Below are positions 8,858 to 55,719 of a DNA stretch of 64,000 nt, in pieces. The notes beneath the pieces are model-generated. The model did no database searches and was not told where the DNA came from. It was given only the letters and a program-made list of their open reading frames with translations. The translations under genes and the position numbers were made by a program. The DNA comes from Nocardioidaceae bacterium SCSIO 66511 (GTDB lineage Bacteria > Actinomycetota > Actinomycetes > Propionibacteriales > Nocardioidaceae): NCBI GenBank assembly GCA_023100825.1, contig CP095846.1, forward strand, positions 682,001 to 746,000. The letters are read 5' to 3'. Position 1 is the first letter of the stretch. Every line of letters begins with the position of its first letter.

Positions 8858-8864
8858 AACGTAA

Positions 8865-8899
8865 GACCGAAAAACGGACTATCCGTCCGAAAAACGAAC
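8865..8899. promoter_or_regulatory. Operator-like repeats between fahA operon and hmgA
   Basis: In the 54-bp divergent gap, two 15-base direct copies of the form GWCCGAAAAACGRAC start at 8865 and 8885, exactly 20 bp apart. Between them CGGAC and GTCCG form an inverted repeat at 8875-8889. Two helical turns of spacing suggests one regulator controlling both directions. Confidence 0.5.
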
Positions 8900-8911
8900 A
8901 CGGAGCGACTT

Positions 8912-10195
8912 GTGGCGCATTACCAGCGGGTCGGGCGCGTACCCGATAAGAGGCACACCCAGTTGCGCGACGACGAGGGCAACCTCTACCGCGAGGAGCT
9001 GATGGGCGAGGAGGGCTTCTCGTCCGACTCGTCGCTGCTCTACCACACGGGCGTGCCGTCGGCGCTCGTCGATTCGACCGTGTGGGACCTGCCGGACCAG
9101 TCGTTGCAGAGCAACCATCCGCTGAAGGCGCGGCATCTGAAGCTGCACACGCTCTTCGATACCGACTCGAATGACTGGAAGGCCAACGACCCGGTCACCG
9201 GTCGCCGGCTGGTGCTCGGCAACGGCGACGTACGCATCAACTACGTCATGGCCGGATCCGCGTCGCCGTACTACCGCAATGCGGTCGGCGATGAGTGCGT
9301 GTACGTGGAGAAGGGCGCGGCGACGGTCGAGACGGTCTTCGGGGCGCTGCCTGTGCGCGAGGGTGACTACGTGATCGTGCCGCGGGCCACCACCCACCGC
9401 TGGGTTCCCGACGACTCCGCCGGGCCGCTGCGCGCGTACGCGATCGAGGGCAACAGTCACATCGCGCCGCCGAAGCGGTACCTGTCGCGGTACGGGCAGT
9501 TCCTCGAGCACGCCCCGTACTGCGAACGTGATCTGCACGGTCCGTCGGAGCCGCTCGTCGTCGACGGCACCGACGTCGAGGTCCTGGTTAAGCACCGGGT
9601 TTCGGGGATGCCCGGTGGCATCGGCGGGAGCAGGCTGGTCTACGCGACACATCCGTTCGACGTGGTCGGCTGGGACGGCTGTCTCTACCCGTACACGTTC
9701 AACGTCGAGGACTTCATGCCGATCACCGGGAAGGTGCATCAGCCGCCGCCCGTGCACCAGGTGTTCGAGGGCTACAACTTCGTGGTGTGCAACTTCTGCC
9801 CGCGCAAGGTCGACTACCACCCGCTCGCCATTCCGGTGCCGTACTACCACTCCAACGTCGACTCCGACGAGGTGATGTTCTACGTCGCCGGCGACTACGA
9901 GGCGCGTAAGGGCACCGGCATCAACGTCGGGTCGATCTCGCTGCACCCGGGCGGGTACGCACACGGCCCGCAGCCCAGCGCGATCGAGGGTTCGCTCGGT
10001 GCGGAGTACTTCGACGAGCTGGCCGTCATGGTCGACACGTTCCGCCCGCTGGATCTCGGTGAGGCGGGGGTGGAGTCGGATGACGGCGCGTACGCCTGGA
10101 CCTGGAGCGGCGAGTCGCGTAGCGAGGGACGAGCGGAGCGCGAGCGCGACCAAAAGGATGAGAGCGGCGAGTCGGGTCGGTACTCGATCGGCTAA
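8912..10195 (+). CDS. hmgA: Homogentisate 1,2-dioxygenase
   Basis: Opens the ring of homogentisate to maleylacetoacetate with O2 and Fe(II). 427 residues. The cupin iron region is visible as HQVFEGYNFVVCNFCPRK, YYHSNVDSDEVMFYV and HPGGYAHGPQPS. The GTG at 8912 follows CGGAG and gives VAHYQRVGRVPDKRHTQ, the usual start. The last part is odd: after YAWTWSGES there is a 19-residue Arg/Glu/Asp-rich insert before a second SGES. It comes from a 57-bp in-frame insertion bounded by 13-bp direct repeats. Confidence 0.95.
   Translation: MAHYQRVGRVPDKRHTQLRDDEGNLYREELMGEEGFSSDSSLLYHTGVPSALVDSTVWDLPDQSLQSNHPLKARHLKLHTLFDTDSNDWKANDPVTGRRLVLGNGDVRINYVMAGSASPYYRNAVGDECVYVEKGAATVETVFGALPVREGDYVIVPRATTHRWVPDDSAGPLRAYAIEGNSHIAPPKRYLSRYGQFLEHAPYCERDLHGPSEPLVVDGTDVEVLVKHRVSGMPGGIGGSRLVYATHPFDVVGWDGCLYPYTFNVEDFMPITGKVHQPPPVHQVFEGYNFVVCNFCPRKVDYHPLAIPVPYYHSNVDSDEVMFYVAGDYEARKGTGINVGSISLHPGGYAHGPQPSAIEGSLGAEYFDELAVMVDTFRPLDLGEAGVESDDGAYAWTWSGESRSEGRAERERDQKDESGESGRYSIG
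10105..10174 (+). repeat. 57-bp in-frame insertion in hmgA flanked by 13-bp direct repeats
   Basis: GAGCGGCGAGTCG occurs at 10105-10117 and again at 10162-10174, 57 bp (19 codons) apart. The stretch between is purine-rich (AGCGAGGGACGAGCGGAGCG type) and codes a charged peptide unlike the rest of HmgA. This fits insertion of a small repetitive element with target duplication, or slippage. The frame is kept. Confidence 0.6.
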
Positions 10196-28237: not shown

Positions 28238-28309
28238 GATCGGGACTTTGGCCCGGAATTCTGGGTGGCCAGGGGCGGGATCGAACCGCCGACCTTCCGC
28301 TTTTCAGGC
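28238..28309. repeat. att direct repeat, left copy (3' half of tRNA-Phe)
   Basis: Matches 41752-41823 over 72 bases with two adjacent mismatches; 28263-28309 is identical to 41777-41823 (47 bp). It holds the tRNA 3' part from the anticodon loop to the discriminator base, then unrelated sequence. It is the displaced chromosomal 3' end left by integration, just past the integrase gene end. Confidence 0.93.
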
Positions 28310-28326: not shown

Positions 28327-29499
28327 TCAGGAGGGTAGTTCATCGTCCGTGCAACCCTCACGCAACTCATCGCCGCTGTCTTCGGCGCCATCGGTCTCAG
28401 CCGGCCGATCATCGGGGCGCGCGCTGGCAAGGTCGCTCAGCGCCGCCGCGATCACTGAATCACGGCCCTCCACTGCGTGCAGGTAACGGTTGGCCGCAGC
28501 CGAGGACGAGTGGCCGAGCCGCAGCTTGAGGTCTGCGAGGTTGGCCCCAGCGGCGGCCGCGAGGCTCTGTCCCGTGTGTCGTAGATCGTGAAACGCGAGG
28601 TCGAGTCCGAGCTTCTTGCGTGCGCGGACGTGCGCCTGGTACACCGCGTTGCCACGCATGCGCGAACCGTCCCGACCGACGAAGAAGTACTCCTCACCCG
28701 CCCAGTCCTGCGCATGCTCGCGTACGACGGGCAGAACATGAGGCGGAATCGTGACTGGCCGACGACCGGCGCGGGTCTTCGGGTCCTTGTCGTACGCACG
28801 CTGCGATTCCAGCAGCTCGACCCGGTTCCGTCGTACCCACACGGTCCCCGCTTCCAGGTCGACGTCCTCCACGCGAAGCGCACAGACCTCACCGCGCCGG
28901 ATACCGCACCAAGCAGCCAACGCGACGGCCGCCCGATATCGAGGTGTGATCGTTTCTATGAGCTGGGCGACTTCGCGAGCCGTGGCAATCGGGCGTTCAT
29001 CAGCCATGTCAGCGGTCGCACCCTTGATGGTGCACGGGTTCCGCTCTATCGCATCGTCGCGCACCGCGGCATTCATTACGGCGTGCAAGAAGGCGTACGA
29101 CTGTTGAATCGAACGCCGACCTCCCTTGCCTGCCAACGCTTTCCGGTACCAGGCACGCACGATGGCCGGGGTGATCTCCGCGAGCGTCATGTCGAGGAGA
29201 TCGCCCATGTGCAGCCGCATGTTGCGATGGCACGTTTCGGCCCACCGCTCACCGATATCGGGACTCTCCTCGAGGTAGTCCGTGGCGTAGTCCTCGAACA
29301 GTGCACGAGCTAACGCCTCGTTTCGCCAGGTTCCACGGCTAAGGTCCGACTCCACCTTCGAGAGCCACCGCGACGCGTCTGCCTTCCTCGTAAAGGTGTG
29401 CGGAGCGTACTGTCGGCGGCCATCAGGCCCGATGAACGACGCTTGATAGCGGCCGGAGCGTTGCCGAACAACCTTGCCGAACTGCCGTCTGGCCATCAT
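28327..29499 (-). CDS. int: Tyrosine-family site-specific integrase
   Basis: 390-residue phage-type recombinase that integrates and excises the element at tRNA-Phe. An N-terminal arm-binding/SAM-like domain (about 1-170) precedes the catalytic domain. Arg is in LAAWCGIRRGEVCAL, the HxxR box in HDLRHTGQSLAAAAG and the nucleophile Tyr in ANRYLHAVEG. Its stop lies 17 bp from the left att repeat. The start overlaps the xis stop (ATGA). Confidence 0.95.
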   Translation of the reverse strand: MMARRQFGKVVRQRSGRYQASFIGPDGRRQYAPHTFTRKADASRWLSKVESDLSRGTWRNEALARALFEDYATDYLEESPDIGERWAETCHRNMRLHMGDLLDMTLAEITPAIVRAWYRKALAGKGGRRSIQQSYAFLHAVMNAAVRDDAIERNPCTIKGATADMADERPIATAREVAQLIETITPRYRAAVALAAWCGIRRGEVCALRVEDVDLEAGTVWVRRNRVELLESQRAYDKDPKTRAGRRPVTIPPHVLPVVREHAQDWAGEEYFFVGRDGSRMRGNAVYQAHVRARKKLGLDLAFHDLRHTGQSLAAAAGANLADLKLRLGHSSSAAANRYLHAVEGRDSVIAAALSDLASARPDDRPAETDGAEDSGDELREGCTDDELPS

Positions 29500-29721: not shown

Positions 29722-31356
29722 TTATGCCGCATCGGACACGGCGGTTGATTGAGTTGCCGAACAGTTTTCGGGTGGTCGGTCGCGGGAGGCGATGACCTCG
29801 CGGGCTCGTTCGTATTGGGTGCGCCATCGGTTGCGTTCGGTGATGGCTTGGCGGACGAGTTCGCGGAAGATGGGCACGTTGTCGGCGTCGCCGTCGGCCA
29901 GGTCGAGGTTCAGTGATTCCCACCGGTAGCGTGGGTCGCCGTCGTCGTTGACGGCATCGGCGGCGTACCGGTCGGTGTCGGGCATCTCGATACCGGCCTC
30001 GTCGAGAACCTCACGCACGACGGCGGCACGGTCGGCCTTGTGCTCGTCGAGTCGTTTGCCGGACCACTGACGTGACACGAGGACACGTCTGCCGCCGTGG
30101 CCGAGGTTGTTGAGCTCGTGGGCCTTCTTGCCACACTCACCGGGACGCATCCCCTCGGCAGCGTCCTTGGGCTGGACCCCGAACCGCAGCCAGTTCGCAC
30201 ACTTCGGGGAACACGGCAGCCACCGAACCTCACGGTGGAGCCGGTCACGGTGCTCGCGCTGTGGCTTGCTCAGGGTGTCGGGGTCGTAGGTTTCCGCGAT
30301 CGACTTGGTGAGGTACTTCGTCAGATACCGCACCGAGTTCGCGACCTCACGCTCGTTGGTCGCGATCAGGCCCTGGTAGTCGAACTGCTTGCCCGCGCGG
30401 ATCACATATGCCGGCTCGTCGTTCTCGGGGTCGATCGCATCAATCGCCTGATCCCACGACGGCAACAGGACGCGGCTGTCGGGGTCGACGTAGCCGCCCT
30501 GGTAGTCGTCCCAGACCGGAAGCCGGCCACCGGTGTAGACGGGTTCGGTGTGTTGGGGCCACCAGACCTGGTGGTAGGTGCCGTCCACGACCTGACGCAC
30601 TGTCTTGCGGGGAATCGTCCCGCGTACCGCGGCGTGCAGATGCAGCGCGAGCCGGTGCTGTGGTTCGACGGTGGCGAAGTACTGCACCTTGTAGTCCGCC
30701 GCCCGGCGCAGGTTCTGAAACAGCCTGTCGACGAGCTTGGGAAAGTGCAACGCATCCAACGCGGCCTTGCGGTAGTCGTAGCCGTATTTCGGATCGATCG
30801 GCGTCCCCGCAATCCCCTCCGACTCCGAATGCCTGCCACCGCACCGGCACCGCACAACCCGCCCACCCCGACGACTGGCGGTGTGAACCGGCCCGTAGGA
30901 CGGGAGTGTGAAGGTCAGGAACATTGACGGCCGATACGACTTCCCGTCCGGTGACGTGAATGTCCGCCCGAGTGTCGTGTCCGCTGTTGGTGACTTCGGC
31001 AGATCGCCCGCATCATCGCGCCGTCTGGTCGAACGCCTACGACGAGCAGAAGCCTCCTCGACCTCCTCAGGCTTATCGGCCTGGTCACCGTCCTGCTCAG
31101 GGTCGGGTCCAGGTTCGACGTCGAATCCGTCGGGCTCGACATCGCGGTGCCAGCCTTCGCGGCATTGGGTGATGCGCAGCTGGCGCGCCTTCTCGGCACA
31201 CGGGCCGCACACGTTCGCCCGCGTCGAGCCGCACGGAATCGGCACATAGTGCTCTTCACCGGTGTCGAGGTCGATGCGTTTACGGATCACCGGACGCACG
31301 CAGACCCCGGCCAGTTCGGCCATCTCCAACAGTTGGGCGCCGTTCATGTCAGTCAT
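29722..31356 (-). CDS. RepSA-like rolling-circle replication initiator
   Basis: 544 residues. Replication initiator of AICEs that nicks the double-strand origin of the excised circle. An N-terminal Cys cluster (CGSTRANVCGPCAEKA), a middle VVRCRCGG, the HUH-like LALHLHAAVRGTIPRK region (His-hydrophobic-His), a tyrosine-bearing YLTKYLTKSIAETY segment and a late CSPKCANWLRFG match RepSA-type proteins. The chosen ATG begins MTDMNGAQLLEMAELAGVC, the usual start, and overlaps the 137-residue gene end. Confidence 0.85.
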   Translation of the reverse strand: MTDMNGAQLLEMAELAGVCVRPVIRKRIDLDTGEEHYVPIPCGSTRANVCGPCAEKARQLRITQCREGWHRDVEPDGFDVEPGPDPEQDGDQADKPEEVEEASARRRRSTRRRDDAGDLPKSPTADTTLGRTFTSPDGKSYRPSMFLTFTLPSYGPVHTASRRGGRVVRCRCGGRHSESEGIAGTPIDPKYGYDYRKAALDALHFPKLVDRLFQNLRRAADYKVQYFATVEPQHRLALHLHAAVRGTIPRKTVRQVVDGTYHQVWWPQHTEPVYTGGRLPVWDDYQGGYVDPDSRVLLPSWDQAIDAIDPENDEPAYVIRAGKQFDYQGLIATNEREVANSVRYLTKYLTKSIAETYDPDTLSKPQREHRDRLHREVRWLPCSPKCANWLRFGVQPKDAAEGMRPGECGKKAHELNNLGHGGRRVLVSRQWSGKRLDEHKADRAAVVREVLDEAGIEMPDTDRYAADAVNDDGDPRYRWESLNLDLADGDADNVPIFRELVRQAITERNRWRTQYERAREVIASRDRPPENCSATQSTAVSDAA

Positions 31357-31762
31357 CGGATTCGTCGCCCTTCTCGGTACGTGTCCAGCGCCGAAGACCA
31401 GACGGGCTCGGGTGGGTTTCGATGAGTCCGGCATCGACGAGCGCGGCCACGATGCGGCCCTGGTCGTCGACCTCCGGAAGGGCCAGCCGGGCAACGGGTC
31501 CGGCTGCCTCGACCTCGCACACGATGTAAGCCAGAACCTGGAGCAGGGGGCGCAGTTCGACCGGCACCCGTTCGATGAGAGCCGCGGTGCCGCCGGGTGG
31601 TTCCCAGCCGTCGAGGGGGAACCAGACGTGATGGCATTGCACGCACATGCGCGGCATCGCCACGTCCGGTTGCTGCGATGGCGACAGTGTGCCCGGCCGT
31701 CCTGGTTCGGCGTTCTGTTGTGCGTGCTTCAGCACACACTGTGCGCAGGTGCAGTCACTCAT
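31349..31762 (-). CDS. AICE protein with two CxxC pairs
   Basis: 137 residues, MSDCTCAQCVLKHAQQ..., with a second pair in MCVQCHHVWFPLDGWEPPGG. The C-terminal half looks like a small winged-helix segment (GRIVAALVDAGLIETHPSP). The four cysteines suggest a zinc ribbon. It sits between the methyltransferase and rep genes with overlaps at both ends (ATGA upstream, 8 bp downstream). No named family; a role in replication or its control is inferred from position only. Confidence 0.65.
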   Translation of the reverse strand: MSDCTCAQCVLKHAQQNAEPGRPGTLSPSQQPDVAMPRMCVQCHHVWFPLDGWEPPGGTAALIERVPVELRPLLQVLAYIVCEVEAAGPVARLALPEVDDQGRIVAALVDAGLIETHPSPSGLRRWTRTEKGDESDD

Positions 31763-32952
31763 GCCGCCTCCTTGGTTGTGACGTGCTGGGTGTCGTCGAG
31801 CCCGATTCCGAGTCCGAGTGCGGTTGCCAGATGGGCTGCGAGTGGGGGTGGGATCGCGTTGCCGACCTGTTCGTACTGCTTGGTGCGTGAGCCTTGCCAC
31901 GGGTAGTCGGGCCGGAACCCCTGCAGGACGCCCGCCTCGACGACCGAGACACGGACCCCGCCGTCGGCGTTCTGCCGGGAGGTGCGGGTGCGGTAGCCCG
32001 GAGGTGCGATCACGTCGGGGCTGTAGGAGCCGACCACCGTCGTCGCGGGTCGATGGCGGAACCAGTCGCCATCACTTGGGCGAGTTGGAAGCCAGACGGC
32101 GGTTCCTTTGCCGGTCACCGTGTCCGCTGGCCCTGCCTCGGCGTCTTTGGGTGTGGCGAGTCCGGTCGACCCGGCTGCGGCCATGTGGGTGGCGAGTTTG
32201 TGGCGGTAGCGGGCGTTCGCGAACGGCTCTGCGCCACCGGTCTGTGTGCCGCCCGACGAGACGGTGCACGACGGCTGGTCGTCGATGCCCCAGCCGAGCG
32301 CGGCAGCCATCGACACCCACGGCATGCGGGCGCCGCCGAACAGGTCGCCGTCGTCGCCGTCACGTGAGTGCGTCGGTTCGGGTGGGAGAACGAGCCTGTC
32401 GGAGCGGGCCAGCAGGATGGCGCGTTTGCGAGTCTGCGGGACGCCGTAGTCGGCGGCGTTGATGACACCGACCCACGTCGTGTAGCCCCATCCGGACAGG
32501 ATGCGGGCGAAGTGTTCCCACAGCCCGCGTACGGGTGGGACTTCCTCGAGCCCGACCACGGCCGGTCGGAGCTCGCGTATCCAGCGGATCGGCTGACAGA
32601 CCAGCGCCGAACGTGGATCGGCCCATGCGGTCCAGGCCGTCGAGTCGTCGCCGTCGGCCATGCGGTCGGCCAGCGTGTGGCAGTTGGTGCGGTCGTCCTC
32701 CCCGCGGCGTAGACCGGCCGGAGACCAGGCCTGACACGGCGGCGAGGCCACCAACCCGTACACGCCGGCGTACTCGCACGGGTCGGTAGCCGCGACGTCG
32801 GCGCACACGCGGGCATGACCTGCGGCTCTGGCGGTCGCACACGCGGCCTCGTCAACGTCGATCCCGGTCACCGACGTGCAGCCCGCAAGGCGCATGCCCT
32901 CGTCCCAGCCGCCCGGGCCAGCGAACAGGTCGACCACCGTTGCGCCGTTCAT
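31759..32952 (-). CDS. C5-cytosine DNA methyltransferase
   Basis: 397 residues; transfers methyl from SAM to C5 of cytosine. Motif I is VVDLFAGPGGWDEGMRLAG, motif IV has the catalytic Cys in ASPPCQAWSPAG, motif VI is LEEVPPV (usually ENV), motif VIII is QTRKRAILLA and motif X is YEQVGNAIPPPLAAHL. No restriction enzyme lies beside it, so it is probably an orphan that shields the element from host restriction. Overlaps both neighbours by four bases. Target sequence unknown. Confidence 0.92.
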   Translation of the reverse strand: MNGATVVDLFAGPGGWDEGMRLAGCTSVTGIDVDEAACATARAAGHARVCADVAATDPCEYAGVYGLVASPPCQAWSPAGLRRGEDDRTNCHTLADRMADGDDSTAWTAWADPRSALVCQPIRWIRELRPAVVGLEEVPPVRGLWEHFARILSGWGYTTWVGVINAADYGVPQTRKRAILLARSDRLVLPPEPTHSRDGDDGDLFGGARMPWVSMAAALGWGIDDQPSCTVSSGGTQTGGAEPFANARYRHKLATHMAAAGSTGLATPKDAEAGPADTVTGKGTAVWLPTRPSDGDWFRHRPATTVVGSYSPDVIAPPGYRTRTSRQNADGGVRVSVVEAGVLQGFRPDYPWQGSRTKQYEQVGNAIPPPLAAHLATALGLGIGLDDTQHVTTKEAA

Positions 32953-33326
32953 GCCGCCGCCCCCTGGTCGTCGAGGCGTGGCCGGATGGTCTCGACGAGG
33001 ACCGCGTCGACCGACACACCGCGATCGAGTGCGGACAGCATCCGGGCGCGGTCGGCTTCGGTCGTTCCGCCCCAGATGCCTTGTTCGGCGTTGAGCAGCG
33101 CAGCCGCGCGGCAGGAGGACCGGACCCGGCATCCGTTGCACGTCGCGAGCGCAGCAGCCTCCATCGATGCGCCCCGTTCGTCGAGTTCGGGGAAGAACAC
33201 GTCGCCGTGGGTGTCGCCGCAGGCGGCCTGTGTCTGCCAGCCCGGCGTGATCCGGCGTGCAAGCTGCGCGGCATGGTCGGGGTCGGGTACCGGCAACACG
33301 AGCTGCCCGTCGAGGTTCGCGCTCAT
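32949..33326 (-). CDS. WhiB-family iron-sulfur regulator
   Basis: 125-residue Wbl protein. The 4Fe-4S cysteines are in QAACGDTHGDVFFPE and CNGCRVRSSC, followed by the GIWGGTTEADR turn motif of the family. WhiB proteins bind the primary sigma factor or respond to redox state. Here it is embedded in the transfer operon between translocase and methyltransferase, so it may tune element or host genes; that role is inference. Confidence 0.92.
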   Translation of the reverse strand: MSANLDGQLVLPVPDPDHAAQLARRITPGWQTQAACGDTHGDVFFPELDERGASMEAAALATCNGCRVRSSCRAAALLNAEQGIWGGTTEADRARMLSALDRGVSVDAVLVETIRPRLDDQGAAA

Positions 33327-34852
33327 GACGCTTCCCCCTCCTCAGCCTGCGCGTCGTCGGTCTCGGTCTGCTCGGCGTCAACGTCGGTGTCGCTCGACGA
33401 GGTGTCGCGCCGTGCGTCGAGGTCGATCACTTCCGCGTCGCGCGGTGCGGGATGCGCGGCCGCGAGAGCGCGAATCTGCTCATCGGAGGTGAACGGAAAG
33501 CGGAGCCGTACTGGGTCGGGAACCCCGTCGACCACGGCATAACCCGTTCCGGGCAGCGCCAGCGGAATCTGGTCACACAGCGCGCCCCGTTCCCGGGCTC
33601 CGTCACCGAGCACCATGTCGACCTGCTCGGACGTGCGCAGACTCAGCGCGACACGGGACGGGAACAGGTCCCGCATGGACAGAATCTCCTTACGCGGGTC
33701 CTGGACCGCGCCGACCACGGTGATGGCCTGTGCCCGTCCTTGGGTGAGCAGCGTCGACAACGCCGCCTCGATCCGCTTCTTCGCGGCCTTGTCGGCCATG
33801 TAGGCGATCAGTGCGGCCAGCTCGTCGACGAGCACGAGGTAGAACGGCTCGTCGACGGTCGGGACGTGCAGACGAGACCTACCGCGCATCGCCTTCTTAC
33901 GTTCGTCGTTGACGGCGACCAGGCGCTCGAGGCCGTCGGCCATCACCGACCCGTCCCCGTCGTACAGCTGGTGGAACAGAGGTGCGCCCATGGTCAGCTC
34001 GTTGAACTTCGGATCAAACCCGACCACCCGCACCAGCCCCGAGGAGATGCCGGGTGCAACGTGGTTGACGATCGACCACAACACGGACCCTTTGCCCGCG
34101 CCGGTCTGACCGACGATCAACAGATGCGTGCCGAGCAGCCGCAGCCGATACGGTGTGCCGTCCTCAGTGAGCGCGACCGGGAGCCGTTTCAACGCGGGCG
34201 ACTCAGCCACGCCGAAGGGCTGCACCGGCTGCGAGAGAACGTCGTGACGGATCAGCTCGACCCGCACCACCCGCCGTTCAAACCCACGGCGACGTGTCCA
34301 CGGCATGACCCCGGCACGCCTGCCGGGTGTGCGAATCCGACACGACTCGGCATTCAACCCCACAGCCAGCGCGTCGGCCTTAGCCGTCCAGTCGCCGATG
34401 GTCTGACCCGCAGGAATCCGCGTCAGGAACCGGTCCATCGACGGCGACGACACCACCGAACCCACCGACGGGAACACCACGCTGCCGTCCGGGTCCTTGC
34501 CCGTCAGCCCGCAGCCCGCGATCACGCCGTCCCAGCGGCGACGCAGCCGGAACCGCCGCAGCCGTCCGTGTAGCCGCCAGACCACCCGCTGACGGAATGC
34601 CTCAGGTCGACGCCACGCCCACAACCCGAGACCAGCAAGGCCGAACAGGACCAGGCCGGCGAGAAGCGGGAGGCCGTAGGAGCTGAGCGACCAGCCCAAC
34701 AGGCCGCCCAGGCCGAGGGCAACGAGACGGACCGGGCGGAGGAGCAGCCAGCCGACGATCCGGGCAACTTTGACGATCAGCCACCCGGCTGCCAGCAGCC
34801 ACAGCGAAATGCGGAGCTTCGCCGGGCGGATACGGACAATCTCGGTAGTCAT
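33323..34852 (-). CDS. FtsK/SpoIIIE-type conjugal DNA translocase (TraB/TraSA-like)
   Basis: 509 residues. Two to three N-terminal membrane segments (about 15-85) anchor it. The motor domain has Walker A LIVGQTGAGKGSVL and Walker B FYLVLVDELAALIAYM, with a GAVQDPRKEIL sensor-like segment. The C-terminal tail is acidic (Asp/Glu/Thr-rich) and lacks a clear gamma domain. In AICEs this single protein moves double-stranded DNA between mycelial cells. ATGA overlaps on both sides. Confidence 0.92.
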   Translation of the reverse strand: MTTEIVRIRPAKLRISLWLLAAGWLIVKVARIVGWLLLRPVRLVALGLGGLLGWSLSSYGLPLLAGLVLFGLAGLGLWAWRRPEAFRQRVVWRLHGRLRRFRLRRRWDGVIAGCGLTGKDPDGSVVFPSVGSVVSSPSMDRFLTRIPAGQTIGDWTAKADALAVGLNAESCRIRTPGRRAGVMPWTRRRGFERRVVRVELIRHDVLSQPVQPFGVAESPALKRLPVALTEDGTPYRLRLLGTHLLIVGQTGAGKGSVLWSIVNHVAPGISSGLVRVVGFDPKFNELTMGAPLFHQLYDGDGSVMADGLERLVAVNDERKKAMRGRSRLHVPTVDEPFYLVLVDELAALIAYMADKAAKKRIEAALSTLLTQGRAQAITVVGAVQDPRKEILSMRDLFPSRVALSLRTSEQVDMVLGDGARERGALCDQIPLALPGTGYAVVDGVPDPVRLRFPFTSDEQIRALAAAHPAPRDAEVIDLDARRDTSSSDTDVDAEQTETDDAQAEEGEAS

Positions 34853-35877: not shown

Positions 35878-36666
35878 ATGGGTACGACCGAAAGAAGCGC
35901 GCAAGGCGCTGGAACACCGAGCAGACAGCTCGCCGCATACCTTCGCGAACAGATCGCAGCCGGTGAACTCGCGCCGGGTGACCGCCTCCCCTCGGAGCGC
36001 GCATTGGCAACGGAGCACGACGTGGCCCGCAATACGGCTCGTGAGGCGATCCGCCAGCTCGCAGAATCCGGACTCGTCACGGCGGAGCACGGCAGAGGCG
36101 TGTTCGTGCGTAACAAGGCACGGCTGATGAGGTTCGGTCAGAGCCGCTACTCGAAGCGTCTACGCGACGAGACCGGCATCTCGCCGTACCACGCCGAGGT
36201 CACCGCTCAGGGCCGGGAGCCTTCCGCGAAGTGCACCAGCGTGACGACCGTGACCCCGCCCGACGACGTGGCCGAGCGGCTCGACCTCGATGCCGACAGC
36301 ACCGTGATTCGTCGCGAGAACTGGTACTACGCCGACGAGGAGCCGATGCAGGTCGGCATCACCTACATCCCGTCGCAAATCGCCGACGGCTCACCGCTCG
36401 CTATGACGGGTGACCGTCTCGGCAAGGGCGACCTGTACGCCCGGTTTGAGGAGAAGGGACACGCGATCACCTACACACGCGAGGAAGTGACCGCCCGCAT
36501 GCCGTCGCCGGCCGAGGCCGACGGACTGCAGCTCCCCGAAGGCGTACCTGTGCTCGAAGTCGTACACACCGGGATCGACCAGGACCGAACCCCGTTCGAG
36601 GTCACCCGATTCGTGATGCGGGCCGACTTCATGGGACTTGACTACCGGATGCCGGTCGACGACTGA
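35878..36666 (+). CDS. GntR/HutC-family repressor (KorSA-like)
   Basis: 262 residues. An N-terminal winged helix (PSRQLAAYLREQIAAGELAPGDRLPSERALATEHDVARNTAREAIRQL) is followed by a UTRA effector domain (about 105-255). In pSAM2 the equivalent KorSA silences transfer and replication genes. Here it is divergent from the transfer operon across three palindromic operators, as expected for the master repressor. Confidence 0.9.
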   Translation: MGTTERSAQGAGTPSRQLAAYLREQIAAGELAPGDRLPSERALATEHDVARNTAREAIRQLAESGLVTAEHGRGVFVRNKARLMRFGQSRYSKRLRDETGISPYHAEVTAQGREPSAKCTSVTTVTPPDDVAERLDLDADSTVIRRENWYYADEEPMQVGITYIPSQIADGSPLAMTGDRLGKGDLYARFEEKGHAITYTREEVTARMPSPAEADGLQLPEGVPVLEVVHTGIDQDRTPFEVTRFVMRADFMGLDYRMPVDD

Positions 36667-37211
36667 TGCCCGGCCAAGCCGCACTCGTCCGACGACGCCA
36701 CGAGGACGACCTAACCGAACTCGCTCAGGTACTCGTTCGAGTCCATGCGCTCGACGGATACCCCGTCGAGGGCGTTGCCGATCCCGAAGCATGGCTCACT
36801 CCCGACACAGAACTCGCAAGCTGGACCGCCGAGTACGACGGCACGATCATCGGCCAGATCACGCTGGCGCAAGCGACACCAGACGACGACGCCGCCCAAG
36901 TGTGGCGCGATGCAACCGACGGCAGCATCGAGGAGCTCACGATCCCTCTACGCCTGTTCGTCGACCCTGCGCATCGCGACCTCGGCGCAGGACGCGACCT
37001 GATGCTCGCCGCCGGAACCTACGCGGTGACGCACGGACGCCCGATCGCGTTCGACGTGATGCTCAAGGACAAGCGAGCCATCGCCCTCTACGAGAGCATC
37101 GGATGCCGCCGCCTCGGCACGATCACGCATCGACACAGCGAAGGCCTCACCGAGCCCGCCGCTGTTTACGCCGGACCCGAAGTACTACCCACCGGACCCG
37201 CGCAGCCCTAA
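36666..37211 (+). CDS. GNAT-family N-acetyltransferase
   Basis: 181-residue acyl-CoA-dependent transferase. The acetyl-CoA loop is in LFVDPAHRDLGAGRDLMLAA, followed by LKDKRAIALYESIGCRRLG. The start lies in the repressor stop (TGATG), so it is made with the repressor. GNAT genes coupled to KorSA-type genes are usual in AICEs; the acceptor is unknown. Confidence 0.87.
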   Translation: MPGQAALVRRRHEDDLTELAQVLVRVHALDGYPVEGVADPEAWLTPDTELASWTAEYDGTIIGQITLAQATPDDDAAQVWRDATDGSIEELTIPLRLFVDPAHRDLGAGRDLMLAAGTYAVTHGRPIAFDVMLKDKRAIALYESIGCRRLGTITHRHSEGLTEPAAVYAGPEVLPTGPAQP

Positions 37212-37282: not shown

Positions 37283-38041
37283 ATGAGCGAGCCGGACGAG
37301 CCACACCGGACGCCGAATGCTTGCTGGTGGTGCGGCGACCCCGAAACGACGGGGGAACACAAGTTCAAGCACAGCGACTTAAAGCGTCTTGCACGGGAGA
37401 ATGGACAGGTCGACCCCACATCGGTCTACAAGGGCGGCGAGGGGTACTCCGGGACCCTGCGAAGCCTGAAGAAGGGTGCAGGTCTTCGCTGGGAGCAATC
37501 CCTCTGCGGTGCCTGTAACAACCACCGCTCACAACCGTTCGACATCGCGTATACGCGCTTCTCCGAGTATGTGTGGGAACGACAAGACCACTTCGAGCAC
37601 TGCAACACCCTCGACTTCAACGATGTGTTCGGCATGTCGTGGTCAGCACAAGCCACAAACCTAGCTCGCTACCTCGGTAAGCAACTCGGGTGCGTGCTTG
37701 CTGAGAAGGGCCTACCAATCGCGCCGAGTATCATCCGCTTCCTGAACGGCGACTCGGGCTGCTCGGACGTCACGTTCGTCCTCTGGCGAGACCGCGCCAG
37801 ACGTGAGCTGCATCGGATGGGCCAGCTGGACGAACTCGACGTTCGCGGATACTGGCTTCCACCCATGCCGCGGTACACCGACGAAGTCGGCGCGTTCGTC
37901 GGGACGGACTATGCATACATCATTGGCTTCTTTGGACTATGCGCCCGCTACCGCACCAACGTGGAGGCGAGCGCATCCTTCTTCGAATCCGCTACTGTGC
38001 CCGTCCCGCTCGATGACCAACCATTCAGCCTCCCGGACTGA
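37283..38041 (+). CDS. HNH-like zinc protein of unknown function (AICE cargo)
   Basis: 252 residues. The N-terminal part has CWWCGDPETTGEHKFKHSDLKRL and, some 60 residues later, SLCGACNNHRSQPFD. Two CxxC pairs, a GEHKFKHSD histidine cluster and a C-x-x-C-N-x-x-R end look like an HNH nuclease finger, the N/R replacing the usual final residues. The remainder is mostly alpha-helical with a hydrophobic patch near ATLARYLG-like text (ATNLARYLGKQLG) and a late FVGTDYAYIIGFFGL segment. It has no ribosome site; TTGCCT and TGTAGT upstream could be a promoter giving a leaderless mRNA. More A/T-rich than the transfer genes. Nuclease or defence role is inference. Confidence 0.65.
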   Translation: MSEPDEPHRTPNACWWCGDPETTGEHKFKHSDLKRLARENGQVDPTSVYKGGEGYSGTLRSLKKGAGLRWEQSLCGACNNHRSQPFDIAYTRFSEYVWERQDHFEHCNTLDFNDVFGMSWSAQATNLARYLGKQLGCVLAEKGLPIAPSIIRFLNGDSGCSDVTFVLWRDRARRELHRMGQLDELDVRGYWLPPMPRYTDEVGAFVGTDYAYIIGFFGLCARYRTNVEASASFFESATVPVPLDDQPFSLPD

Positions 38042-38475
38042 ACCTCTCGATCGTCTCACCCGAGTTACACACGCGGTCGCGTCACCGGTCGCGTGACCAC
38101 GTTGCCGATTCCGGCTCTCTCCTTATCAAGGGCGCGCGCCGCTACGCGGCGCGCTTCGCTCCGTCGCGCCACGCGCCCGGGCATGCGGACCTTCGGCCCG
38201 TTCCGGGCCGCTCGCGCTCGGAGCTACACGCCTCGCTACCGGCGCGCGCACAGAACGCAGGAGTCGTCAGGCATCAGCTCGTGCGGCGAGTTCGTCGACC
38301 TGGCCGTCGAGCCCCGTCCCCTGATCGGTCCAGTCTTCGGCCTCCGCTCCACGAGTCAAGGGCGCTCCTACGTCGCGTCACTCCGTGATGGCGCAAGCGC
38401 CACCCTTGACACGCTCCACTCCGACCTACGAGCGGCACCTATCAGGGGATGGGGCAGGTGTGCCCGGACCTTCCA
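38042..38475. other. Non-coding AICE region with GC-rich inverted repeats
   Basis: No convincing gene. It holds a perfect hairpin at 38134-38154 (GCGCGCCGC, TAC loop, GCGGCGCGC). TCAAGGGCGC is repeated at about 38126 and 38358, and an inverted partner GCGCCACCCTTGA lies near 38399. Repeated inverted motifs in an otherwise empty stretch fit an origin or transfer locus, or a double terminator between the convergent neighbours. Confidence 0.5.
38134..38154. repeat. Perfect 9-bp inverted repeat with 3-base loop
   Basis: Arms GCGCGCCGC and GCGGCGCGC around TAC. It lies between convergent cargo genes, with no T run on either side. Confidence 0.8.
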
Positions 38476-39927
38476 TCATCGCCAGGGACGGTTCCAGGCC
38501 CTCGTGAGCGCATTGTGGAGGACGAACCCGTACCGTGCCGTGAATCCGGCACCAGAGACCTTACGGAAGACGAAGTCCGTATGCTCAATCTTTCCCGACG
38601 CGTTCCTAATACCGATTCCGCCGACCTCAAACATCTGCTTCAGAAGCATCATGGTCTCGCGTGGCTCTAGGCTTCCCTCAAGGTCTTCTTGTACCTCGCT
38701 GAACACAAACACGCGAGTTGGAAGTGTGCGCATTGCATCACGAAAGGCCGAGAGCTTGCGCTCGTTCCCGTACGGGAGCACCCCAGCGAGATTGTCGAAT
38801 ATCTCGCCTTCAAAGTAGTGCTCACTGTAGCTTTTTACGGCCTCGCGCGCATGATCGGATGTTACCGGCGTCGAACCACGGTGCGACGTCTGGACGTACC
38901 CCATGAGCGAGACCAGATCGCGAGGTATAAGTCGAGTGTAGTCGAGCAGATACTCTGAGACTTCGGTGTACGGGCCGAGGTCAACCGGTCCACGCAGGTA
39001 GGTCTTGACCAGGTTCTTTAGGTCTGGGCGCGCCACCGCGGCCTTACTCTCGACAAGACTCCACAACTTGTTGCCAGCTCCGATGCCGAGAGCGCTCCAG
39101 TCGAGGTGGACCGAATGCGGCTTGATCTTGTTGAGCTCGGCGCTGGGCAACACGTCGAAGATGTCTGACCGTACGGCGGCCACCACGGATATACGAGAGT
39201 CAAGGCCTCGGAGGTATCGATTGATCGACTCAATCGCGTGCATTAGGCCTGCTAACGATCGCAGCTCGTCCTCGGTCTCGAAGAAGAAGGAGTCAAGGCC
39301 GTCGAGCGCCACAAGATGTTGGCTCGTCGTCTCAACTCTTGCGATCGCGGCCTTCAAGATGGAGCACAGCTCGAGAGGCGTCGCGGACTTGACGGTCGTC
39401 CTTGAGGTAGTGACATCGACGACCTTGAGCTTGATTTTGACCGTCAGTGACGACCATTCAGCAACCTTTGCCCTCCAGTCTGTTGAGATCAAACCTTGCC
39501 GTTGCAGGTCGTCACGGAGCGTGTAAAACTCTCGAGGCGCGTTAATGCCCTCATCCTCCGCTAGCGACCCGAATATTCTTAAGAGAAGAAGGAACTCCCA
39601 TGCGGACTGCGCACGAGAGGCACCCGGAGTCTGCCCGGTCTGGATCCGTGTGACGTCATTCACTGGAAAGGAACGCAGGTCCCACCAAACAAAGAACCGG
39701 TCCCAGCGGTCGAGCCACTCCAAACGCAGGTGTTCTAAGACTGCAGACTTTCCTGCACCCTTAGGACCAAGTAGGACCCACGTGCGGCGCGCGGCGATGC
39801 CATACGCCGCCTCGAGGTAGTCATAAAAGCCAGCCCGCAGGAGTTCTGGTTGCTCGACTGCCTCCATGTTGGCGTCGAGGTGACCGAAGTGCAGTTCGCG
39901 CAGAGGCGTTGGCTTTGCTGGTGGCAT
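38476..39927 (-). CDS. P-loop ATPase, Sll1717-type (AICE cargo)
   Basis: 483-residue STAND/AAA-like ATPase. An N-terminal DANMEAVEQPELLRAGFYDYLEAAYG leads into Walker A VLLGPKGAGKSAVLEHL (about 51-67) and Walker B HLVALDGLDSFFF. A sensor segment is ISVVAAVRSDIF. RLIPRDLVSLMGYVQ then matches the R-P-R-D-L segment of Sll1717-type proteins, ending in a winged-helix-like part. The gene is visibly richer in A/T and uses more AGA/AAG codons than its neighbours, so it is probably a recent import. Relatives occur in defence islands, but no function is proven. Confidence 0.75.
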   Translation of the reverse strand: MPPAKPTPLRELHFGHLDANMEAVEQPELLRAGFYDYLEAAYGIAARRTWVLLGPKGAGKSAVLEHLRLEWLDRWDRFFVWWDLRSFPVNDVTRIQTGQTPGASRAQSAWEFLLLLRIFGSLAEDEGINAPREFYTLRDDLQRQGLISTDWRAKVAEWSSLTVKIKLKVVDVTTSRTTVKSATPLELCSILKAAIARVETTSQHLVALDGLDSFFFETEDELRSLAGLMHAIESINRYLRGLDSRISVVAAVRSDIFDVLPSAELNKIKPHSVHLDWSALGIGAGNKLWSLVESKAAVARPDLKNLVKTYLRGPVDLGPYTEVSEYLLDYTRLIPRDLVSLMGYVQTSHRGSTPVTSDHAREAVKSYSEHYFEGEIFDNLAGVLPYGNERKLSAFRDAMRTLPTRVFVFSEVQEDLEGSLEPRETMMLLKQMFEVGGIGIRNASGKIEHTDFVFRKVSGAGFTARYGFVLHNALTRAWNRPWR

Positions 39928-40350
39928 CCGGACAACTTACCGGGACAGCGACTGGCGCGTAGTCCGATTCCGGAAGATCAGCCCCGAGGATCGTCGATGC
40001 GAGTGTCTGGATGCTCCGAGGTGTGCAGCAACGGCTGTTCAAGCACAGACCCGGCGAGCGTCGTGGGACCTCGACAGGTCCCGGGCCCGATCGCGATCGA
40101 CACGGACCGTCGACTTGTAGCGAACTGCGTACTGCTTCCCCAGGTCTATCGAACCATCGAGTCTGGCACAGGTCGGGCCGCTCGGGCAGGGCTTTCGGCT
40201 GGGCACCAGGTGACCCCCAAACTGACCCCAACGCCCCCAGTCGAAGGTCGTTGCGCGCGACTCGACGGGACCGACCGAGCAACGGAATCACGGCATGGCC
40301 GCAGTCTCGCCGACGCCTTTTAATCCGCGGGCGAGGCTCCGCCGCAGAGG
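39928..40350. other. Gene-free AICE stretch
   Basis: Between the start of the ATPase gene and the end of the DUF6226-like gene. Reading frames here lack family features and ribosome sites. It must contain the ATPase promoter, which I cannot place with confidence. Confidence 0.4.
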
Positions 40351-41007
40351 TCACCACCAAGCCGTCCCCGACACGACCGGATAGGCGGACCGCTTCGCCC
40401 TGGCATCAGCGAGTACTTGCTCGGCCTCCGCAAAGCCCCATGGCCCGCTCGCGGACCAACCGTCGCGTTCGCCCTGCACGGTCCCTCGTGGAGTGGCGAC
40501 GTGGGTGAACGCGCCGGTTACCACGTCGAGGATGTGATCATCCAATTCCTCTAGTAGCTCCGCAGACCCCGAGTCGCAGGCATCGCAGCCGCAGTCGGGG
40601 AGCAGCACGATCTCAACCGCTGGAGTACCGGCTCCAAGCAGAACGCCGTTGTCGGTCGGGCCTTTAAAGCCGCTAGTGCACACCAGGAGTGCGATGGCGT
40701 CGGTTCGGTGTGGTCGCACCCAGCGCGCCTGGCTGATCGGACCGCTGTCGGGCTTCTTCCCGCGCCACATCGCGCTCATGTCGTCGACCGTGCTGACCGT
40801 CGCGAGACCCAACCCGGTCAACGCACGAAGCCACGCCTCGACCCGAGCGCCGAGAATCCGATACTTCGCAGGATCGGAGACACGGGAGTACTCGGCCTCA
40901 TCAGGCTCGTCCTCTGCGCCCGCATGCGGATCGGGCCAGGAGGGCGTGTTCGCTCCGGTCACCCTGAACTCAGCCTCGACGGCGGCACGAACCGTGTCTA
41001 CGTTCAT
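40351..41007 (-). CDS. DUF6226-like protein
   Basis: 218 residues. The centre has LLPDCGCDACDSGSAELLEELDDHILDVVTGAFTHV, a Cys-rich metal-type loop followed by an acidic helix, which I associate with DUF6226 proteins of actinobacteria (from memory). It ends with WGFAEAEQVLADARAKR. Function unknown. Part of the right-end cargo. Confidence 0.7.
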   Translation of the reverse strand: MNVDTVRAAVEAEFRVTGANTPSWPDPHAGAEDEPDEAEYSRVSDPAKYRILGARVEAWLRALTGLGLATVSTVDDMSAMWRGKKPDSGPISQARWVRPHRTDAIALLVCTSGFKGPTDNGVLLGAGTPAVEIVLLPDCGCDACDSGSAELLEELDDHILDVVTGAFTHVATPRGTVQGERDGWSASGPWGFAEAEQVLADARAKRSAYPVVSGTAWW

Positions 41008-41751: not shown

Positions 41752-41823
41752 GATCGGGACTTTGGCCCGGAATTTCGGGTGGCCAGGGGCGGGATCGAAC
41801 CGCCGACCTTCCGCTTTTCAGGC
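41752..41823. repeat. att direct repeat, right copy (within intact tRNA-Phe)
   Basis: Partner of 28238-28309. 41777-41823 is the 47-bp identical core covering the 3' half of the tRNA gene. Integration here rebuilt a complete tRNA. Confidence 0.93.
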
Positions 41824-41853
41824 GGACGCTCGTACCAACTGAGCTACCTGGCC
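41780..41853 (-). tRNA. tRNA-Phe (GAA)
   Basis: 74 nt from 41853 down to 41780. The acceptor pairs GGCCAGG with CCTGGCC. The D arm is GCTC/GAGC, the anticodon stem TCCGC/GCGGA with loop CTGAAAA (anticodon GAA), and the T arm GGCGG-TTCGATC-CCGCC. The discriminator is A and CCA is not encoded. Its 3' half is supplied by the integrated element. Confidence 0.97.
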
Positions 41854-54840: not shown

Positions 54841-55719
54841 CTACGTCGGGAGGTGCTGAGCGAGGAAGTCGAGCTGGGCCGGTGCCATCCGCCGCCAGTA
54901 GCCGACGTCGTGGTCGCCGAGCTGGAAGCCACCCGCCGGGGCGTCGTCGAAACCGTCGACGTACGTGCGGGTGTATCCGTAGAACGGGTCGCCCTCGCCG
55001 CAGTCGATGCGCACCGGGATGCCATGCAGAAGGCCCTGCTGACCCCACACGAGCGCGTCGGCGAAGTCGTCCTCGCTGTCGAACGCACCAGGTGAGGTCT
55101 CGGAGTAGCTCGACCACAGGGCAGGGCTCTCGGCGACGACGCCGAACACCTTGCGCGTACCGAGGCGTTGCGCGAGTAACAGCGCGCCGTAGCCACCCAT
55201 CGACCAGCCGAGAAGTCCGATGCGTCCGACATCGAGCCCGTACTTGCCGAGCAACGGGATGAACTCGTCGACCACCATCGAGCCGGAGTCCTCGCCGCTG
55301 TCGCGAGCGTGCCAGTACGTATCGCCTCCGTCGACGCTGGCGATTGCGAACGGCGGTGCACCGCCTTCGACTGCAGCGGCAAGGAAGCGGTCGAGTCCGA
55401 GGTCGTCGAATGCCGATGAGTGGTCCATATGGCGACCGTGCAGTGCGACGACGACCGGCAGGTTGCCGCGGTGACCGGGCGGGTAAGCGAGTGACCATCG
55501 GCATCGCCGACCCGCCCTTGCCGTGGACCTGAACGCGCCGCTGACGACCCGACCCGGGCGTACGTCGGGGATAGACCCGTCGTCACCGTCGATGCCGAGA
55601 TGGCTGTACGCCCACGACCTACCCGGGAGCACACCGGTCTCGACGCCGACGGCGCCTGCAGTCGCGCCGAGTGCGACTGCGCCACCGGCGACCAGGAAAC
55701 CCCGCCTGCTCACGCCCAT
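54841..55719 (-). CDS. Tat-exported esterase (antigen 85/EstD-like)
   Basis: 292 residues. The Tat signal begins MGVSRRGFLVAGGAVALGATAGA. The alpha/beta fold has the nucleophile GWSMGGYGALLL, the acid in DCGEGDPFY and His in GDHDVGYW. Resembles esterase family PF00756. Convergent with the GntR regulator; the ATG is the last before the RR motif. Confidence 0.85.
   Translation of the reverse strand: MGVSRRGFLVAGGAVALGATAGAVGVETGVLPGRSWAYSHLGIDGDDGSIPDVRPGRVVSGAFRSTARAGRRCRWSLAYPPGHRGNLPVVVALHGRHMDHSSAFDDLGLDRFLAAAVEGGAPPFAIASVDGGDTYWHARDSGEDSGSMVVDEFIPLLGKYGLDVGRIGLLGWSMGGYGALLLAQRLGTRKVFGVVAESPALWSSYSETSPGAFDSEDDFADALVWGQQGLLHGIPVRIDCGEGDPFYGYTRTYVDGFDDAPAGGFQLGDHDVGYWRRMAPAQLDFLAQHLPT

What the first reader, a model, noticed from the sequence alone, without database searches (positions are those of the whole stretch)
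38476..39927. Sll1717-type ATPase cargo, candidate defence component
Clear Walker A and B, R-P-R-D-L-like segment and winged-helix-like tail. Composition differs from the rest of the element. Such ATPases are poorly understood and recur in mobile or defence regions. It lies convergent with the HNH-like gene, separated by a repeat-rich gap.
Basis: inference. Interest (0 to 1): 0.55.

Follow-up and report, generated by a model that had tools for sequence, protein, structure and literature searches.

The report
Mobile ORC-like ATPase, likely phage defence
A small mobile element carries a lone ATPase gene, built like a DNA-replication initiator, whose relatives occur on plasmids and at one fixed site in P2-like phages where anti-phage genes are known to sit, so it is probably an untested one-gene phage defence.

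Summary
The ORF at 38476-39927(-) is real: a full-length P-loop ATPase of NCBIfam NF047389 (Sll1717 family, function unknown). It is low-GC cargo of a 13.6-kb AICE in tRNA-Phe. The predicted structure is an ORC/Cdc6- or STAND-like AAA+ core with a winged-helix tail; no effector domain was recognised. Close relatives are low-GC genes in unrelated chromosomal places, and 12 of 14 (window included) have a leaderless-type -10 box before the start codon. Sister AICEs of the same genome lack the gene. Enterobacterial relatives, including that of E. coli ATCC 8739, sit between S and V of P2-like prophages, where P2 has Orf30; by my recall that Orf30 is fun, this is a published defence hotspot. All 8 phage contigs found agree. 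Some relatives lie near Gabija, Lamassu, SIR2 or type I RM genes, but this enrichment is not significant. The HNH-like gene does not travel with it (1 shared genome of 294). The 'repeat-rich gap' is a conserved 366-bp piece of the AICE. A defence role is likely but untested; searches of the held library for the family's name and identifiers found no paper.

The parts
38476..39927 (-). Sll1717-family P-loop ATPase, 483 aa (the finding)
39745..39768 (-). Walker A, GPKGAGKS (residues 54-61)
   Evidence: G54, K56, G57, G59, K60 invariant in 11 members
39292..39318 (-). Walker B, HLVALDGLD (residues 204-212)
   Evidence: D209 and D212 invariant; strand 203-209 in the model
39163..39192 (-). sensor-1-like strand with invariant R253 (residues 246-255)
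   Evidence: strand 246-253 in the model; naming it sensor 1 is inference
38917..38925 (-). P-R-D motif (residues 335-337), sensor-2-like, at the start of a lid helix
   Evidence: P335 and R336 invariant; helix 335-348; naming it sensor 2 is inference
38479..38778 (-). C-terminal helical and winged-helix region (residues 384-483)
   Evidence: the exact boundary is my estimate
39934..39939 (-). -10-like box TAAGTT, 6 nt before the start codon (leaderless-type promoter)
   Evidence: 12 of 14 close relatives, window included, have TANNNT 5-8 nt before the start
38102..38467 (.). 366-bp conserved non-coding element of the AICE backbone (the 'repeat-rich gap'), bordering the cargo slot that holds the ATPase
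37283..38041 (+). HNH-like ORF, a neighbour; not shown to be part of the ATPase unit
40351..41007 (-). DUF6226 gene, other occupant of the terminal cargo slot
   Evidence: no match in the other loci searched
28263..28309 (.). 47-bp att repeat, integrase-side end of the element
41777..41823 (.). 47-bp att repeat at the 3' end of tRNA-Phe (41778-41853, -)
28327..29499 (-). tyrosine-recombinase-type integrase of the element
   Evidence: position beside the att repeat; reading as integrase is by eye from the sequence, no family search was made
29722..31494 (-). RepSA-type replication initiator
   Evidence: PF20199, E 4e-89
31759..32952 (-). C5 cytosine DNA methylase
   Evidence: scanned as 31759-33381; start
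33323..34852 (-). FtsK/TraB-type transfer protein
35878..37211 (+). GntR/UTRA regulator (35878-36666) and GNAT acetyltransferase (36666-37211)

Best explanation
The gene is a self-contained, single-gene cassette carried as cargo by an actinomycete integrative and conjugative element (AICE), and it most likely defends the host, and so the element, against phages or other invading DNA. Shown by computation: it is mobile cargo, a promoter-like box abuts its start codon in its subfamily, and the protein is an intact ORC/Cdc6- or STAND-like AAA+ ATPase with a winged helix and no recognised effector domain. Inferred: the protein assembles on DNA in its ATP-bound state through the winged helix; DNA or a protein complex peculiar to an invader (for example replication intermediates) triggers or stabilises the assembly; this blocks replication of the invader, or recruits a host partner that does. 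Because no nuclease, toxin or membrane domain was recognised, direct interference with invader DNA is preferred over self-killing.
For: Full-length family match. Model pLDDT 83.9, pTM 0.83; best solved structures are Cdc6/Orc1 2qby (Foldseek E 4e-7, TM 0.41/0.51; Z 13.0, 322 aligned, 5.7 A) and archaeal ATPase 2fna (Z 13.4, 331 aligned), with the defence ATPases BrxC (9zdx, Foldseek E 1.6e-3) and RdrA (Z 10.8) also listed. Cargo: sister elements of the same genome share rep, TraB and the 366-bp stretch but not the ATPase; another related element has an OLD/GajA-like ATPase gene on the other side of that stretch. Lower GC than its surroundings in 25 of 25 actinobacterial loci, 7 of 7 and 8 of 8 non-actinobacterial loci. 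Leaderless-type -10 box in 12 of 14 close relatives against 35 of 254 neighbour genes (p 1.6e-8). Enterobacterial relatives lie between S and V of P2-like prophages: 3 of 3 E. coli records viewed (of 9), a Klebsiella phage and 8 of 8 viral contigs, with S-protein identity to the ATCC 8739 copy down to 52%. P2 has Orf30 there, another E. coli strain an AIPR gene. A P2 hotspot holding fun and three newly selected defence systems is reported in PMC9519451 (passages). Known or candidate defence genes lie near 5 actinobacterial relatives.
Against: No experiment. The window protein matches no PADLOC model beyond weak P-loop hits. Defence neighbours are a minority: recognisable systems or candidates at 4 of 13 close-relative loci, at least 1 of 7 other phylum loci, and no complete system among the rows shown for 11 more distant family loci (single methyltransferase and candidate matches only), against no complete system among the rows shown for 10 control stretches (which also have single matches); 5 of 31 against 0 of 10 gives p 0.31, 4 of 13 against 0 of 10 p 0.10. 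Several relatives stand among housekeeping genes. The -10 box is absent in the 6 distant members tested, 3 of them actinobacterial. No effector domain, so the block is a guess. The winged-helix region of the window protein has a net charge of only +4. That P2 Orf30 is the gene called fun is recalled; the hotspot passage names fun, not S and V.
Confidence: 0.5

Rival explanations
1. The ATPase serves the element itself: an ORC/Cdc6-like factor for replication, partition or control of transfer of the AICE.
For: ORC/Cdc6-like fold with winged helix; it lies next to the conserved 366-bp stretch, which could be an origin or transfer site.
Against: Sister AICEs with the same chassis lack it, relatives recur near housekeeping genes, and P2-like prophages of other strains have the S-V site empty or filled by other genes.
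Confidence: 0.15
2. It is a transposition-type ATPase (TnsC/MuB-like) that helps its own cassette move, which would explain copies at many sites.
For: TnsC (7rzy, Z 11.5) and MuB (8xvb, Z 10.2) are among the structural matches; copies occur at unrelated sites; recombinase- or transposase-type genes adjoin three relatives (recombinase beside L033; integrase-core gene near L044 and a weak DDE match beside L040).
Against: Those recombinase-type genes are of different kinds and none was seen to recur; only 20 neighbour proteins were scanned with Pfam. Two Microbacterium copies share one site; P2 copies keep one site across diverged phages.
Confidence: 0.08
3. It forms a two-gene system with the convergent HNH-like gene.
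For: The two genes are neighbours and convergent; the HNH-like gene is somewhat low in GC (0.607).
Against: They share 1 of 294 genomes, the window's own, the HNH-like gene is in none of the other ATPase loci searched, and a backbone stretch of the AICE lies between them.
Confidence: 0.04
4. A general stress or regulatory ATPase that spreads horizontally for reasons other than invader defence.
For: Sporadic, low-GC genes fit many selfish or niche functions; no effector domain is recognised; most chromosomal relatives examined have no recognised defence neighbour.
Against: Presence at the P2 S-V site in 8 of 8 viral contigs and restriction or Abi genes nearby on plasmids point to conflict with invaders.
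Confidence: 0.2

Closest known systems
NCBIfam NF047389, P-loop ATPase, Sll1717 family (PHROG 13260)
   Same: Full-length member; the window protein and three relatives tested, two of them phage-borne, match PHROG 13260, unknown function.
   Different: The family has a name but no function; searches of the held library for its name and identifiers found no paper.
PADLOC candidate PDC-M28C
   Same: One distant relative (L026) matches it clearly (E 3e-18) and seven others of ten weakly (E 1.5e-4 to 0.0085), so a cousin is already listed as part of a candidate multi-gene defence system.
   Different: The window protein, L021 and L033 of its subfamily do not match it, and no partner gene recurs beside them.
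ORC/Cdc6 initiators and archaeal SSO1545-type ATPases
   Same: Same overall fold, AAA+ core plus winged helix, over most of the chain.
   Different: About 12-16% identity; invariant Arg at the sensor-1 position and a PRD lid motif; patchy cargo gene rather than a fixed initiator.
BrxC/BrxD (BREX), RdrA (RADAR) and other ORC/Cdc6-clade conflict ATPases
   Same: Same ATPase clade by structure; PMC12839542 and PMC10853773 (passages) describe ORC/Cdc6 ATPases in many conflict systems.
   Different: Those described work in multi-gene systems or are fused to other domains; this one is solitary and small.
P2 fun (Orf30, recalled as the same gene) and other genes of the P2 S-V locus
   Same: Enterobacterial members sit at the same place between S and V.
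   Different: P2 Orf30 had no tblastn match in the eight viral contigs that carry the ATPase.

Membership tests
NF047389 ATPase_Sll1717 | Score over the curated cut-off along the whole profile | tested here: met
   243.6 bits against 75, positions 1-454 of 454
NF047389 ATPase_Sll1717 | Intact Walker A and B and the PRD motif (as conserved in the members aligned here) | tested here: met
   invariant columns
ORC/Cdc6-STAND-like AAA+ ATPases | AAA+ core followed by a winged helix, structural match to solved members | tested here: met
ORC/Cdc6 replication initiators | Initiates replication at an origin, loads a helicase | not testable with these tools
STAND immune NTPases (Avs type) | Fused effector domain and sensor repeats | tested here: inconclusive
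   No Pfam domain over cut-off, and 483 aa leave little room; NLR and CED-4 among the structural matches
Known defence systems in PADLOC-DB 2.0.0 | Match to a system model | tested here: not met
   best E 0.016, P-loop region only, for the window protein; relatives match PDC-M28C, one clearly and seven weakly of ten
BREX | BrxC together with a BREX methyltransferase and PglZ in one locus | tested here: not met
   none of the eight element genes scanned is PglZ or a BREX methyltransferase
Single-gene anti-phage defence | Expression protects against phage | not testable with these tools
   -
AICE (host element) | Integrase, Rep, FtsK-type Tra, att repeats in a tRNA gene | tested here: met
   (integrase by eye); features as in PMC3218068 (passages)

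The most novel reading that the evidence does not exclude
Sll1717 ATPases are a widespread, so far undescribed class of one-gene anti-invader defence: an ORC/Cdc6-type DNA-binding ATPase, shipped as a portable cassette (in the window's subfamily with its own leaderless promoter), that stops phage replication without nuclease or toxin by acting as a decoy or blocker on invader DNA.
Probability: 0.35. Interest if true: 0.72.

Novelty: new variant of a known kind. Interest (0 to 1): 0.52.

Why it matters
A named but functionally blank ATPase family gets a concrete, testable role. It is found in about 3% of sampled Actinomycetota genomes (8 of 296, the window's own included) and in some E. coli. 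A laboratory strain, E. coli ATCC 8739, carries an apparently intact copy at a P2 prophage site linked to defence, so one deletion and a phage panel would decide. If it defends, a bare ORC/Cdc6-type ATPase without effector would be a complete immune system, and AICEs would be seen to work as interchangeable carriers of defence cargo.

Tried and rejected
HNH-ATPase pairing: rejected on co-occurrence. Viral-contig searches with the window's subfamily, the HNH-like gene and the Enterococcus plasmid member found no relatives; only the enterobacterial subfamily was found there. No solved structure by sequence: the profile search gave 200 matches up to E 1, of which the 60 shown are P-loop or AAA-region matches (E 5e-4 or worse), phmmer one match at E 0.34.

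PADLOC enrichment: four gene sets were scanned (13 close loci, 147 genes; 10 control stretches, 146 genes; 11 distant family loci, 150 genes; 7 phylum loci, 85 genes). Dropped before scanning: 3 of 150 close-set genes for the residue limit, among them the L033 type I R gene already annotated; 5 of 155 distant-set genes; 3 of 13 control stretches (38 of 184 genes). Locus L032 (an ATPase fragment at a contig end) was left out of the GC table and of the scans. The controls come only from the unnamed family genomes, not from the nine named ones. Each table shows only the 25 commonest models of 44 to 152, so 'none shown' is not 'none'. Single matches in the controls (mad2, mad3, mad8, PsyrT, DpdF, IetA, MTase_II, PD-T4-6 and others) and in the distant set (MTase_I, MTase_II, PDC-S47, PDC-S48 and others) were not counted as systems; nor were PDC-S15 and PDC-M05A in the phylum set, whose loci I did not identify. 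The PcrA-type helicase of L037 is the likely second GajB match.

The empty-site test around L021 was uninformative: 4 of 99 genomes have the flanking gene; the Oerskovia test could not be run. Leaderless test: start codons of relatives were chosen by homology with some freedom (L037, L040, L043 and L044 have more than one candidate start); gene calls come from my own codon-usage scripts. L039, L040 and L041 have stops inside the ATPase frame and were left out of the structure alignment. Genome prevalence counts are lower bounds: at most 5 candidates per genome were scored. The E. coli count (9 of 5426) is by megablast with one subfamily only. A search for ORC/Cdc6 defence papers listed 10 of 57 papers; none of the titles or abstract beginnings shown names this family.

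Full report
What is there. The ORF at 38476-39927 on the minus strand is a real gene: 483 aa, ATG start, full-length NF047389 (P-loop ATPase, Sll1717 family) at 243.6 bits against a cut-off of 75. Pfam gives only sub-threshold AAA_16, STAND and ORC-like hits. It is the only such gene found in the 4.6-Mb genome. In an alignment of 11 diverse members (18-58% identity to the window protein) the Walker A lysines and glycines, D209 and D212 of Walker B, R253, W277 and P335-R336 are invariant.

The element. A 47-bp exact repeat at 28263-28309 and 41777-41823 lies at the 3' end of tRNA-Phe (41778-41853, -). Between the repeats lie an integrase-type gene (by eye), a RepSA initiator, a cytosine methylase, an FtsK/TraB transfer protein, a GntR regulator, a GNAT enzyme, the HNH-like ORF, the ATPase and a DUF6226 gene. 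This is the layout of an AICE (features as in PMC3218068, passages seen). The ATPase has the lowest GC of the nine element genes measured, 0.577 against 0.607-0.705.

Sister elements. The genome holds four further TraB genes of this kind at E 1e-60 or better, three of them 87-89% identical. The four stretches around them have att repeats of 41-46 bp at tRNA-Gly, tRNA-Lys, tRNA-Gly and tRNA-Thr genes. Three (L116, L117, L118) share rep, TraB and the non-coding stretch that in the window spans 38102-38467; it is 90-91% identical over its whole length in L116 and L117 and over its last half in L118, where the whole-length match is 78%. A further copy marks another related element, L134. So the 'repeat-rich gap' is a conserved backbone piece. 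From its end to the att repeat the slot measures about 0.13 kb in L116, 1.07 kb in L117 and 0.89 kb in L118, against 3.3 kb in the window, where it holds the ATPase and DUF6226. None of the sister elements has the ATPase (one copy in the genome). L134 has, on the other side of the same stretch, a gene with OLD/GajA-type ATPase motifs (best solved match 6p74, OLD family, E 1.7e-9, but over residues 1-43 only; GajA E 1e-5 over residues 241-368). L119 has an apparent DNA methyltransferase (weak support, E 2.6e-4 over 38 residues). The ATPase is therefore replaceable cargo.

A single-gene cassette. The codon-based gene caller missed many of the ATPase genes, being so unlike their neighbours. In 25 of 25 actinobacterial loci, 7 of 7 further ones and 8 of 8 non-actinobacterial ones (E. 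coli 0.325 against 0.54-0.57) the ATPase has lower GC than its surroundings. The genes nearby differ from genome to genome and several are housekeeping: pcrA- and sucC-like in Oerskovia, ispG in Mycetocola, an ADH and a carboxyl transferase in Brevibacterium, aconitase and a NUDIX gene in L021. Twelve of 14 close relatives, the window included, have TANNNT 5-8 nt before the start codon, against 35 of 254 neighbouring genes and 107 of 4881 ATGs (Fisher p 1.6e-8). PMC3160421 (passages) describes this as the mark of leaderless genes in high-GC bacteria. None of six distant members tested has it, three of them actinobacterial, so the feature belongs to the window's subfamily, whose gene seems to bring its own promoter to any site. 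Three of nine named relatives have stops inside the frame, which fits gain and loss.

Structure. The AlphaFold2 model (11 sequences; pLDDT 83.9, pTM 0.83) matches Cdc6/Orc1 from end to end (2qby: Foldseek E 4.4e-7, TM 0.41 by query and 0.51 by target; Z 13.0, 322 residues, 5.7 A) and the archaeal ATPase 2fna (Z 13.4, 331 residues), then Orc1/Orc2, TnsC, plant NLRs, RdrA and CED-4. A BrxC complex (9zll) is Foldseek rank 9 and BrxC itself (9zdx) rank 15. R253 ends the fourth core strand and R336 begins a lid helix, so they are likely sensor-1 and sensor-2 residues (inference). There is little room for an effector domain.

Where relatives live. The gene is patchy: 16 of 294 genomes of the window's family and 8 of 296 of the phylum, lower bounds. 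The close subfamily was found in nine named Actinobacteria. On plasmids, relatives lie near a type I system in Frondihabitans, a DNA methyltransferase, a PDDEXK nuclease and a helicase in Polaromonas, and AbiEi/AbiEii and a restriction endonuclease in Vibrio, all within about 10 kb; the Enterococcus plasmid showed no such neighbour, one Klebsiella plasmid showed VapC and an ABC-three-component gene and another neither.

The P2 site. A Klebsiella P2-like phage and nine of 5426 E. coli genomes carry near-identical copies. In the three E. coli records viewed and in the Klebsiella phage the gene sits alone between the virion-morphogenesis gene S and the baseplate gene V. All eight viral-contig relatives, including three with only 52-81% identical S proteins, sit at the same place. 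In P2 itself Orf30 is there; that Orf30 is the exclusion gene fun is recalled. Of eight further E. coli S-V sites viewed (of 60 rows listed, 995 records), three were empty, one held an AIPR gene, one a DUF6216 gene and three hypothetical genes. PMC9519451 (passages) reports a second P2 hotspot that holds fun and three of the defence systems found there; the passage does not name S and V. PMC9122126 (passages) concerns the other, old/tin, hotspot.

Chromosomal and other actinobacterial neighbours. Within about 6.5 kb of 13 close relatives, four loci have recognisable systems or candidates: Gabija GajA and GajB (L023), Lamassu LmuA and LmuB (L039, adjacent), type I RM (L033, the Frondihabitans plasmid) and SIR2-domain, PDC-S53 and Dsr1-like genes (L045). 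The Microbacterium site of L039 is shared by L038, which keeps the ATPase but only a 233-residue end piece of LmuB, so the two systems probably sat together before. Of seven phylum loci, L122 has a type I R gene close by, and M and S models match once each in the same set. Among the rows shown no complete system appears for 11 distant family loci or for 10 control stretches, though both have single matches. Five of 31 against none of 10 gives p 0.31, four of 13 against none of 10 p 0.10: the trend is in the expected direction but not significant.

A cousin in PADLOC. Of ten relatives scanned, L026 matches the candidate PDC-M28C at E 3e-18 and seven others match it weakly; the window protein does not. 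So a relative of this family has already been listed as part of a candidate defence system, which supports the reading and lowers its novelty a little.

The HNH-like neighbour. It has relatives in six other family genomes, none of which has the ATPase, and no match in the other ATPase loci searched. The pair does not travel together.

Reading. It is built like ORC/Cdc6-clade ATPases, which PMC10853773 and PMC12839542 (passages) describe as recurrent parts of conflict systems; RdrA is compared with Cdc6 in PMC9994260 (passages). It is not a member of BREX or of any PADLOC system as tested. The best-supported account is a one-gene defence cassette; how it stops an invader is inference. Searches of the held library for the family's name and identifiers found no paper.

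Noticed in passing
window 38102-38467; copies in L116, L117, L118, L134: A 366-bp non-coding stretch with inverted repeats is conserved among the AICEs of this genome (five near-full copies, the window's included, and two fragments); a cis-acting transfer or replication site is a plausible guess.
   Followed up: partly
G000: window, L116, L117, L118, L119, L134: One genome holds six related elements at different sites with different cargo, an unusual set for studying cargo exchange; the ends of L134 were not determined.
   Followed up: partly
L134:10330-12081(-): A related element carries a gene with OLD/GajA-type ATPase motifs next to the same 366-bp stretch.
   Followed up: partly
window 35878-37211; L116, L117, L118, L119: In each AICE the same slot holds a DNA-binding regulator and a small enzyme that differs: GNAT, inositol-phosphatase-like, PP2C-like, HAD-like, NUDIX-like (named by eye, except GNAT). 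The repeated pairing is unexplained.
   Followed up: no
L039, L040, L041: The ATPase frame is broken by stops in three of nine named relatives.
   Followed up: no
L038 9145-9843: A 233-residue end piece of the Lamassu gene LmuB, 85% identical to that of L039, remains beside the ATPase.
   Followed up: partly
L026:9265-10749(-) and 7348-9219(-): A distant relative matches PADLOC PDC-M28C (E 3e-18) and is followed closely by a 623-aa gene without Pfam match: possibly a two-gene version.
   Followed up: no
window 55124-55214(-): ARAGORN calls a tRNA with an odd four-base anticodon, gtta.
   Followed up: no
L053:19512-19560, E. coli ATCC 8739: A clear hairpin with a T run follows the E. coli ATPase gene by eye, though the terminator scan listed none.
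   Followed up: no
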